NCBI GenBank assembly: GCA_023105745.1
Contig: JALGQZ010000009.1
Coordinates: 19,268,564-19,332,563 of the forward strand
Source: Austropuccinia psidii
Lineage: Eukaryota > Basidiomycota > Pucciniomycetes > Pucciniales > Sphaerophragmiaceae
Length of the DNA stretch: 64,000 nucleotides
Direction of reading: 5' to 3'
The translations under genes were made by a program, and so were the position numbers. The stretch's first letter is position 1. Every line of letters starts with the position of its first letter. Below, in pieces: positions 40,935-41,854 of the stretch. A model generated the notes under the pieces. That model was not told the origin of the DNA. It ran no database searches and saw only the letters and a list, made by a program, of their open reading frames with translations.

Positions 40935-41854
40935 TGTTTGAAGATAACCCAACAGAAGAAAACCAAGCTACTGTTGAGAGATTGGTGCAAGAAACTTGTC
41001 AAAGTTCTCCAACACCAGTTATCACCAAAAGAAAGAAAGCTAAGAAATTAGACTTTCCAGGGCCCACCATTCAAGACTCTGAAGGTGAGCACCTCTTTTT
41101 TAAATTGCCATAAAAGAATTTTACTCTAAAAATACTTTTATTTCTTCTTATTCTTTAATTATGACTACCAGAAGAGGTTCCCAATACTCCATCCAATCAG
41201 ATGGAGCTGGACTCAGAAGTAGAATTGATCCCTCAAAAGGGAAAAGAAAGGGCAATATCCCCAGTGGAACAGAATCCACACAAGGAAGTGCCTTATCCCA
41301 AAGGCAAGTCCCAGAAATGCCCATGATATCTGAGCCTGAATTGGAACTAAGTATGAGTAACTCAAACAGGTACAAATCACATTCAGAGGGCTCAAATAGA
41401 CATCTACATGAGCCAGTACAAGCAGTATTGCACAGTGTACAAGGACAAAGACTGGGAAATGCTGCCTCAAATACACCAAGGAGTGATGAACTCCTGGCAC
41501 ATCCTGAAAAAGTTCCTCAAAGAGGAGGAGATAGTGAAATACTCCAATGGATGGAATCCACTGTCATCCAAACCTCAAATCAAAAAAATCAAGGATTATC
41601 ATGCCAAAAAGAGGGAGGCAACCAAGGAAGAAGCCCCAGTAGCTTCTACCAGCAAGCCTCAAGCCAACCCACTTCCCCAAGAAGGGAAGAAGAACAAGAA
41701 AAAGCATTGGAGGAAACCATATTCCCCAAGCTACAGAATCCCAAGAATCCAAAAGGATGCCATGGACAATGTTTTCAACATGGCCAGAACCTTGATGGAA
41801 TTCAAGGACAAGGAAGAGCAAAGAATGAGACAACCTCATTTTCCAAAGAAATAA
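40935..41854 (+). CDS. Rt4 ORF1: spliced accessory protein overlapping Gag-Pol
   Basis: Exon 40935-41084 (FEDNPTEENQATVERLVQET, then KRKKAKKLDFPG) joins 41172 across an 87-bp intron (41085-41171, GTGAGC...CTACCAG). The frame continues EEVPNTPSNQMELDSEVELI. Three stops at 41324, 41348 and 41354 lie inside a candidate 66-bp GC-AG intron (41304-41369, GCAAGT donor, AACTAAG branch-like site, CAAACAG acceptor) whose removal keeps frame. The rest, 41370-41854, reads MSQYKQYCTVYKDKDWEML, YSNGWNPL, a Lys-rich linker and the tail SYRIPRIQKDAMDNVFNMAR, ending TAA. The tail and GW.P motif match Rt2 ORF1. Gag-Pol is open in the -1 frame throughout. No known domain; likely a structural or RNA-binding partner of Gag (inference). 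Confidence 0.62.

What the first reader, a model, noticed from the sequence alone, without database searches (positions are those of the whole stretch)
40935..41854. Possible splice switch between two overlapping proteins in three retroelement families
Seen: in Rt2, Rt3 and Rt4 a short intron (31317-31380, 36783-36850, 41085-41171) joins an open exon to a second exon in one frame (ORF1), while Gag-Pol (ORF2) is open in the -1 frame over the same second exon for 632, 701 and 683 bp. In all three the first ORF2 ATG falls inside the intron tail, 20, 20 and 11 bases before the acceptor. Inference: spliced RNA makes ORF1 and loses the ORF2 start; unspliced RNA keeps it and makes Gag-Pol. This would couple genomic RNA to Gag-Pol synthesis through intron retention. 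Caveat: an ORF start is by definition the first ATG after a stop, so some clustering near the acceptor is expected.
Basis: partly seen in the sequence, partly recalled or inferred. Interest (0 to 1): 0.87.

Follow-up and report, generated by a model that had tools for sequence, protein, structure and literature searches.

The report
Splice switch in rust-fungus retrotransposons
Three families of jumping genes in a rust fungus appear to store two different proteins in the same stretch of DNA, with the start signal of the main protein hidden inside a tiny intron, so that splicing would decide which protein is made, a retrovirus-like trick that still needs RNA evidence.

Summary
Largely real, with corrections. 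Three nested Ty3/gypsy elements each carry a leader, an ORF1 exon, a phase-1 intron holding the Gag-Pol start, and a stretch read in two frames. The second exon is not open as stated: Rt3 has a stop private to the window copy, Rt4 needs a second, GC-AG intron (41304-41369); the Rt2 start is 31367, not 31361. New evidence: the leaders are almost purged of ATG in every frame up to the Gag start (0 of 1000 shuffles as low, each element); genomic copies keep the Gag ATG (Rt4 30/30, Rt3 10/10, Rt2 29/29) and mostly the splice sites; ORF1 exon 1 has no indels in the copies examined; overlap changes favour ORF1-synonymous ones in Rt4 (15/29, 0.22 expected) and Rt3 (11/18) but not in old Rt2 copies; Rt2-Rt4 ORF1 similarity exceeds what ORF2 forces (0/1000). 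Exon 1 starts TG in frame after AG in all three, so a leader exon ending in A would create the ORF1 ATG. No RNA evidence. Closest working analogues: Cer1/CERV and complex retroviruses. ORF1 function (perhaps export of unspliced RNA) is inference.

The parts
38399..40424 (+). Rt4 5' LTR (3' copy 47077-49101; CTTAG on both flanks)
   Evidence: repeats D10/D13, sequence; 99.5% identity over an 830-nt part
39677..41160 (+). Rt4 promoter-to-Gag leader, nearly free of ATG in all frames
   Evidence: one ATG (40293) in the window copy, absent from the 3' LTR; 0 in 16, 1 in 13, 2 in 1 of 30 copies, window copy included; CAT control 20-24
40935..41084 (+). Rt4 ORF1 exon 1; after a polypyrimidine-AG, begins TG in the ORF1 frame
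   Evidence: AG|TG in 30 of 30 copies, no indel in 29; 49 codons without stop (111 of 2000 shuffles do as well)
41085..41171 (+). Rt4 intron 1
   Evidence: GTGAGC and CAG in 30 of 30 copies, 25 copy-indels at 3 sites in 29 copies
41161..41163 (+). Rt4 Gag-Pol (ORF2) start codon inside intron 1
   Evidence: 30 of 30 copies, window copy included
41172..41303 (+). Rt4 ORF1 exon 2, dual coding with ORF2
   Evidence: substitution rate 0.0005, no indels in 29 copies
41304..41369 (+). Rt4 putative ORF1 intron 2 (GC-AG, 66 nt, in frame); still coding for ORF2
   Evidence: AGGCAAGT and CAG in 30 of 30 copies; stops in ORF1 if kept; one protein model, P0138, joins here
41370..41854 (+). Rt4 ORF1 exon 3, dual coding; ORF1 stop 41852-41854
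   Evidence: 829 relatives at E<=0.001 for 41357-41851; 34% identity to Rt2 ORF1
41161..46959 (+). Rt4 ORF2 Gag-Pol (CCHC, RT, RNase H, integrase, SH3); in-frame stop at 46207 in this copy
35931..35939 (+). Rt3 candidate leader donor (GT at 35934) with A at -1
   Evidence: highest donor score in 35500-36860 by a rough matrix of mine; A|GTAAGT in 10 of 10 copies
35957..36830 (+). Rt3 ATG-free stretch up to the Gag start
   Evidence: one ATG (35954) just upstream is kept in 10 of 10 copies
36483..36782 (+). Rt3 ORF1 exon 1 (AG|TG)
   Evidence: 24 of 33 protein models that match loose exon-1 and exon-2 patterns join exactly at intron 1
36783..36850 (+). Rt3 intron 1 with Gag start 36831-36833
   Evidence: ATG 10 of 10, CAG 10 of 10, GTAAAT 9 of 10
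36851..37551 (+). Rt3 ORF1 exon 2, dual coding; stop at 36961 in this copy only (0 of 10 others)
   Evidence: ORF1 open in 9 of 10 copies, ORF2 in 10 of 10; 1100 relatives at E<=1
36831..38398 (+). Rt3 ORF2 first part, up to the Rt4 insertion (rest from 49102 on)
31043..31118 (+). Rt2 candidate leader intron, donor with A at -1
   Evidence: A|GT kept in 28 of 29 copies, 9-mer in 25; five other A|GT sites of the leader are kept in 26-29; donor score only fifth in its region
31119..31316 (+). Rt2 ORF1 exon 1 (AG|TG)
   Evidence: AGTG in 26 of 29 copies; no indel in 195 nt
31317..31380 (+). Rt2 intron 1
   Evidence: GTAAGT 22 of 29, CAG 26 of 29
31367..31369 (+). Rt2 Gag-Pol start codon inside intron 1
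   Evidence: 29 of 29 copies; 31361 in 1 of 29
31381..32012 (+). Rt2 ORF1 exon 2, dual coding

Best explanation
These are Ty3/gypsy LTR retrotransposons of a rust fungus (Austropuccinia psidii or a very close relative) with a retrovirus-like split of one transcript. Unspliced RNA has a leader almost free of AUG, so scanning ribosomes reach the AUG inside intron 1 and make Gag-Pol. Spliced RNA loses that AUG; a leader splice onto AG|TG, with a leader exon ending in A, makes a junction AUG, and the ribosome reads ORF1, partly in the other frame of the 5' gag sequence. Shown by sequence: two frames with signs of selection, conserved splice signals and intronic Gag start, AUG-poor leader. Inferred: splicing itself, the junction AUG, intron 2 of Rt4, and the role of ORF1, most likely a nuclear or RNA-binding accessory protein that helps unspliced RNA to be exported or packaged, as CERV does for Cer1 (that last step at roughly one in three). 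The confidence below is for the two-product splice layout, not for the role of ORF1.
For: ATG-free gaps of 877, 868 and 601 nt end exactly at ORF2-frame ATGs and rank 1, 2 and 5 on the + strand of the window; the leaders downstream of the LTR have 0, 1 and 0 ATG against 12.8 (Rt3), 5.8 (Rt2) and 8.0 (Rt4) in shuffles, 0/1000 as low each (order of the observed: Rt2, Rt3, Rt4). Copies: Gag ATG 30/30 (window copy included), 10/10, 29/29; AG|TG 30/30, 10/10, 26/29; acceptor CAG 30/30, 10/10, 26/29 (for Rt4, Rt3, Rt2). Exon 1: no indels in 29, 10 and 29 copies, while the leaders carry many (same calls; Rt4 0/150 against 20/507 sites, p=0.011); exon 1 lengths are all multiples of 3 and intron 1 is phase 1 in 3 of 3. 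Overlap: ORF1 score of Rt2 and Rt4 238 against mean 88.7 (max 160) with ORF2 proteins held fixed, 0/1000; ORF2 score 133 against 76.7, 2/1000; ORF2 openness given ORF1 0/1000 in three elements. Rt4 distinct changes synonymous in ORF1 15/29 against 0.220 expected, p=4e-4; Rt3 11 S, 6 N, 1 stop. Protein models of A. psidii MF-1 use the same junction: 24 of 33 (Rt3) and 7 of 8 (Rt4) that match loose patterns. If intron 1 is kept, ORF1 stops inside it before the Gag AUG in 3 of 3.
Against: No RNA or peptide data; the protein models are computed genes. ORF1 openness given ORF2 is not beyond chance (50, 228, 124 of 1000), and in the Rt2-Rt4 comparison the unused third frame scores 111, not far below ORF2's 133. 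The leader donor is plausible in Rt3, one of several in Rt2 and unresolved in Rt4. Rt3 keeps one upstream ATG in 10/10 copies (1-4 per leader), Rt2 copies have 1-7. Rt2 copies are old: ORF1 open in 9/29, ORF2 in 14/29, synonymous share neutral in both frames. Rt4 exon 1 synonymous share is not raised (3/11), the ORF2 share in the Rt4 overlap is not significant (10/29, p=0.15), and the overlap does not have significantly fewer changes than exon 1 plus intron 1 (29/614 against 18/237, p=0.13). In Rt3 the ORF2 frame tolerates change (17 N, 1 S), and intron 1 varies no more than exon 1. Rt3 ORF1 is not demonstrably homologous to the other two (P=0.041, probability 1.3%). Copies were picked by similarity in the region studied, which biases comparison with flanks.
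Confidence: 0.72

Rival explanations
1. ORF1 is the N-terminal part of Gag and a programmed -1 frameshift joins it to ORF2; the ORF2 frame in the overlap is not translated.
For: ORF2 lies in the -1 frame relative to ORF1 in 3 of 3, the right direction; some protein models mix the two frames.
Against: No X XXY YYZ heptamer in the overlap of Rt3; the single ORF1-frame ones of Rt2 and Rt4 lie 153 and 615 nt before the stop. ORF2 is open over the overlap beyond chance in each element (0/1000); its ATG is conserved and ends the ATG-free leader.
Confidence: 0.06
2. Partly spliced RNA (leader intron removed, intron 1 kept) makes Gag-Pol by reinitiation: ORF1 starts at the junction AUG, stops inside intron 1, and ribosomes restart at the Gag AUG. 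The switch is then set by intron 1 alone.
For: With intron 1 kept, ORF1 stops 1 nt (Rt3), 47 nt (Rt4) and 12 nt before 31361, i.e. 18 nt before 31367 (Rt2), upstream of the Gag ATG. The candidate leader donors of Rt3 and Rt2 lie downstream of the primer-binding-site-like sequence.
Against: The AUG-poor leader fits direct scanning on fully unspliced RNA better.
Confidence: 0.12
3. Only ORF2 matters; ORF1 is an incidental open frame and the introns are chance GT..AG matches.
For: No RNA data; ORF1 openness given ORF2 is not beyond chance; in the old Rt2 copies the ORF1 synonymous share is neutral.
Against: ORF1 similarity of Rt2 and Rt4 is beyond what ORF2 imposes (0/1000); ORF1-synonymous excess in Rt4 and 11 of 18 in Rt3; no indels in exon 1, which ORF2 does not cover.
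Confidence: 0.05
4. The splice layout is real, but ORF1 has an ordinary structural role (for example a matrix or scaffold protein) and retention is not regulated; the intronic Gag AUG is simply where genes of this layout start, as in retroviruses. (Not exclusive of the best explanation; it competes only with its last, inferred step.)
For: Rt4 ORF1 has a mostly helical prediction (mean pLDDT 67) and no hit among Pfam families or solved and viral folds at E<=0.001.
Against: Nothing here excludes it; basic stretches such as KRKK in Rt4 exon 1 hint at a nuclear or RNA-binding role but are common.
Confidence: 0.3

Closest known systems
Cer1 (Ty3/gypsy, Caenorhabditis elegans) and its spliced product CERV
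   Same: A spliced mRNA of a Ty3/gypsy element encodes a separate protein, one exon of it in a frame other than gag, while unspliced RNA encodes Gag-Pol (PMC10309623: abstract, section 6 and found passages).
   Different: In Cer1, exons 1-3 of CERV are read in the gag frame; here ORF1 reads the overlap in another frame and the spliced RNA loses the Gag AUG. [quoted passage not shown] No sequence comparison with CERV was made.
Retroviral layout: 5' splice donor upstream of the gag AUG, with spliced regulatory mRNAs (Rev, Rex, Tax type)
   Same: Gag AUG lies in an intron and is absent from spliced RNA (recalled from general knowledge of HIV-1, not looked up).
   Different: Intron of 64-87 nt, and the spliced RNA continues through the 5' gag sequence in another frame instead of skipping gag and pol.
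EVADE (Arabidopsis) and BARE1 (barley) Ty1/copia splicing
   Same: Spliced and unspliced RNAs of one element make different products (PMC8892269 and PMC3735527, passages).
   Different: There the spliced RNA makes Gag alone; here it would make a different protein and cannot start Gag at its AUG.
Ogre (plant Ty3/gypsy)
   Same: LTR element with a functional intron (named in PMC12786077, passages).
   Different: Position of the intron differs as recalled (within the gag-pol region); the Ogre paper itself was not read.
MDG1-group sORF1/sORF2 upstream of gag (Drosophila)
   Same: Accessory ORFs upstream of gag in LTR retrotransposons (PMC11952523, passages).
   Different: The passages report transcripts with no evidence of splicing, and mention no overlap with gag.

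Membership tests
Ty3/gypsy LTR retrotransposon | Paired LTRs with a short target duplication | tested here: met
   CTTAG flanks Rt4 (read); duplications of Rt2 and Rt3 not checked
Ty3/gypsy LTR retrotransposon | CCHC, then RT, RNase H, integrase in this order, with a chromo/SH3-type C-terminus | tested here: met
   Rt4 met; Rt3 met except that its integrase core scores 31.2 against a cut-off of 32.6; Rt2 only RNase H above cut-off and integrase below it in the pieces scanned
Ty3/gypsy LTR retrotransposon | tRNA primer-binding site | tested here: inconclusive
   a shared TTTGGGGGCC-like sequence follows each LTR; no tRNA was matched to it
Element with spliced accessory gene and unspliced Gag-Pol (Cer1/CERV type) | Spliced RNA exists and encodes the accessory protein | not testable with these tools
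   sequence and computed protein models only
Element with spliced accessory gene and unspliced Gag-Pol (Cer1/CERV type) | Accessory protein is nuclear and needed for export of unspliced RNA | not testable with these tools
   basic motifs only
Element with spliced accessory gene and unspliced Gag-Pol (Cer1/CERV type) | Accessory frame differs from gag, at least in part, and is under selection | tested here: met
   not seen within the old Rt2 copies
EVADE/BARE type splicing | Spliced RNA makes Gag only | tested here: not met
   the predicted splice removes the Gag ATG
Gag-Pol by programmed -1 frameshift from ORF1 | Conserved slippery site in the ORF1 frame near the overlap end | tested here: not met

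The most novel reading that the evidence does not exclude
Retrotransposons that fill a gigabase rust-fungus genome have evolved a complex-retrovirus style switch of their own: ORF1, started at a splice-made AUG and overprinted on gag, controls how much RNA stays unspliced and leaves the nucleus, so that its own level decides when Gag-Pol and genomic RNA are made.
Probability: 0.25. Interest if true: 0.85.

Novelty: new variant of a known kind. Interest (0 to 1): 0.66.

Why it matters
It would add a fungus to the LTR retrotransposons with a spliced accessory gene, in a form (Gag start in the intron tail, a leader purged of AUG, a second protein overprinted on gag) that makes the old question of how such elements divide one transcript between genome, Gag-Pol and regulator directly testable with RNA-seq that exists. 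The families are abundant (2156, 2856 and 4170 first-look candidates for the Rt4, Rt3 and Rt2 stretches, of which 40 each were scored), and ORF1 pieces are annotated as 'hypothetical proteins' in the listed hits, so it also bears on rust gene counts.

Tried and rejected
Rejected: that ORF1 is continuous across exon 2 in all three window copies; a 42-nt second intron that I first imagined for Rt3 (note), since the stop is absent from 10 of 10 other copies; an Rt2 Gag start at 31361; a frameshift model; P0130 (M before FEDN) as proof of the junction AUG, because its contig of 1067 bp leaves little room for a distant leader exon. A leader donor could not be fixed for Rt4.

Led nowhere: viral contigs (nothing) and prokaryote contigs (55 pattern matches, none confirmed); fold searches of the Rt4 ORF1 model (none at E<=0.001); the Rt3 ORF1 model (mean pLDDT 50); profile comparison of Rt3 with Rt2/Rt4 ORF1, though both weak models show four helices, a linker and a last helix, with a GWNP motif between helices 3 and 4; tRNA and Rfam scans (none). 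Nine paper searches, not all aimed at this question, listed no title or abstract that reports this layout in a fungus; I saw listings and passages only, and the library holds open-licence papers. One search used wrong exon 1 coordinates for Rt2 and Rt3 (redone; only its branch-point lines are used). One search had 14 of 30 loci in the wrong orientation and ended in an error (redone).

Full report
Setting. The window holds three nested LTR elements: Rt2 (LTRs from 29071 and 57709) contains Rt3 (LTRs from 34448 and 53420), which contains Rt4 (38399-40424 and 47077-49101, flanked by CTTAG). Rt4 carries a CCHC knuckle, RT, RNase H, integrase and a Tf2-1-like SH3 domain; in Rt3 the CCHC, RT, RNase H and SH3 pass Pfam's cut-off and the integrase core is just below it. 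LTR parts are 99.5% (Rt4, 830 nt), 99.0% (Rt3, 390 nt) and 90.8% (Rt2, 644 nt) identical, in keeping with the nesting order. The 120 listed relatives of Rt4 ORF1 (of 829) are all gene models named Austropuccinia psidii MF-1; for Rt3 ORF1 119 of 120 listed (of 1100), one being unnamed. The window's unnamed assembly has 1,015,390,075 bases in 84 contigs, like the gigabase A. psidii genome (PMC8063080, passages).

Observation. The three GT..AG stretches are there. In the window copies the second exon is open in the ORF1 frame only in Rt2. Rt3 has one stop, absent from 10 of 10 other copies. Rt4 has stops at 41324, 41348 and 41354; a GC-AG stretch, 41304-41369, of 66 nt would remove all three in frame. 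Its AG|GCAAGT and CAG are in 30 of 30 copies; if it is kept, ORF1 has 3-5 stops, the terminal one counted; with both introns left out ORF1 is open in 27 of 30, and ORF2 over the overlap in 28 of 30 (window copy included). One protein model, P0138, joins exactly there.

The Gag start. The test that escapes this is to count ATG in all frames. Between the LTR end and the first ORF2 ATG the window has 0, 1 and 0 ATG in Rt2, Rt3 and Rt4, against 5.8, 12.8 and 8.0 in dinucleotide shuffles, none of 1000 as low in any; among the ATG-free gaps of the + strand the three ending at these ATGs rank 1, 2 and 5. In Rt4 the only ATG between promoter and Gag, 40293, is absent from the 3' LTR; in 30 copies that leader has 0 ATG in 16, 1 in 13 and 2 in 1, at twelve places, while CAT, the same word on the other strand, occurs 20-24 times. 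Rt3: 1-4 ATG and 17-26 CAT in 10 copies, with ATG 35954 in 10 of 10. Rt2, the oldest: 1-7 ATG against a CAT mean of 17.7. The Gag ATG is in 30 of 30 (Rt4), 10 of 10 (Rt3) and, at 31367, 29 of 29 (Rt2) copies; 31361 is in 1 of 29. One of several branch-point-like YTNAY words in each intron has its A 2-3 nt before the ATG at 36831 and 41161, and 9 nt before 31367; that the Gag start sits between branch point and acceptor is therefore possible, not shown.

ORF1. In the spliced reading no exon 1 has an ATG. All three follow a pyrimidine-rich AG and begin TG in the ORF1 frame, so a leader exon ending in A would give A|TG. Candidate donors with A at -1: Rt3 35934 (A|GTAAGT in 10 of 10 copies) and Rt2 31043 (A|GT in 28 of 29, but five other A|GT sites of that leader are kept in 26-29); in Rt4 several are possible and none is compelling. 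Exon 1 lengths (198, 300, 150) are multiples of 3 and intron 1 is in phase 1 in 3 of 3; exon 1 is free of stops, which 10, 17 and 111 of 2000 shuffles match (Rt2, Rt3, Rt4), so Rt4 alone would not be significant; with intron 1 kept, ORF1 stops inside it in 3 of 3.

Selection. Over the last 458 (Rt2) and 485 (Rt4) nt of the overlap, with ORF2 proteins held fixed and synonymous codons shuffled, the Rt2-Rt4 ORF1 score falls from 238 to a mean of 88.7 (maximum 160; 0 of 1000 reach it); with ORF1 held fixed, ORF2 falls from 133 to 76.7 (2 of 1000). The third frame scores 111. Over the whole overlap the ORF2 frame is open beyond chance in all three (0 of 1000), the ORF1 frame is not (50, 228, 124 of 1000). 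Among Rt4 copies 15 of 29 distinct changes in exons 2 and 3 are synonymous in ORF1 (0.220 expected, p=4e-4) and 10 of 29 in ORF2 (p=0.15); the overlap has fewer distinct changes (29/614) than the following ORF2-only stretch (118/1245, p=2e-4), but not significantly fewer than exon 1 plus intron 1 (18/237, p=0.13); exon 1 shows 3 of 11 synonymous. In Rt3 the overlap has 11 S, 6 N and 1 stop in ORF1 but 1 S and 17 N in ORF2: there ORF1 is the tighter frame, and the ORF2 part, richer in S, Q, N, G, P, T and charged residues (0.73-0.74 against 0.59-0.63), looks like a tolerant extension. In old Rt2 copies both frames look neutral, ORF1 open in 9 of 29 and ORF2 in 14 of 29. Exon 1, which ORF2 does not cover, has no indel in 29 (Rt4), 10 (Rt3) or 29 (Rt2) copies, while intron 1 has 3 sites in Rt4, 6 in Rt2 and none in Rt3. 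The copies read were the best-scoring ones for the region under study (30 of 40 scored of 2156 candidates for Rt4; 30 of 40 of 4170 for Rt2, both with the window copy; 10 of 40 of 2856 for Rt3), so rates outside the query are biased upward relative to inside.

Protein models. Of 120 listed Rt3 relatives, 33 match my loose patterns for exon 1 and exon 2, and 24 of these join exactly at intron 1; 20 of 120 begin like the Gag start by a loose pattern (one, P0217, is probably not one). For Rt4, 8 of the 18 hits match both patterns and 7 join exactly; 4 of 138 begin MTT.RG. Six partial Rt3 models begin exactly at exon 2, and seven partial ones of both families exactly at the first full codon of exon 1. 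These are computed annotations; I did not see how MF-1 was annotated.

What ORF1 does. No Pfam family at E<=0.001 for the Rt4 and Rt2 pieces and the Rt3 ORF1 piece; no fold match for Rt4. Rt4 ORF1 is predicted helical at modest confidence. Rt4 exon 1 has KRKK, Rt3 exon 1 KGKGKR. CERV of Cer1, also a product of spliced RNA and with a KRKK motif, is needed for export of unspliced RNA (PMC10309623, abstract and passages). I take an export or packaging role as the most likely single function, at roughly one in three, and mark it as inference; the likeness is of layout, not of sequence.

Verdict. Dual coding with an intronic Gag start is well supported by sequence; the splice switch is likely but unproven at RNA level. 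It works like known systems and differs in its parts: a new variant of a known kind.

Noticed in passing
41161-46959 and 49105-53419: Rt4 ORFs hold 0 CpG in 5.8 kb (184 expected) although LTR parts are 99.5% identical; the Rt3 part holds 1 (191 expected). The leaders keep some (Rt4 8 of 14.9 expected, Rt3 10 of 40.7, Rt2 5 of 18.0). May be long adaptation to CpG methylation and deamination, which PMC8063080 (passages) describes for this genome.
   Followed up: partly
35541-36830, 39673-41160, 30263-31360: CpGs of the three leaders are often in RCGT after a T run (for example 36336, 36106, 39820, 39961, 31330); a possible cis motif array. The motif also occurs elsewhere and on the other strand, so only a lead.
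   Followed up: partly
10568-18980 (- strand): An element with Rt3-like LTRs but an internal region in which Rt2-Rt4 ORF1 and the Gag N-terminal parts found no match, with 275-bp tandem repeats at 13345-15029: probably non-autonomous.
   Followed up: partly
62711-64000 (- strand): An Rt2-family LTR in opposite orientation.
   Followed up: no
27500-29060: Decayed remnant of another retroelement next to the Rt2 5' LTR, with a protease-like stretch seen by eye.
   Followed up: no
8280-9266 (- strand): MULE transposase domain.
   Followed up: no
L006 and L007 (G000:C5): Two Rt4 copies 8.7 kb apart on one strand, the spacing of Rt4's own LTRs; perhaps a tandem pair sharing an LTR.
   Followed up: no
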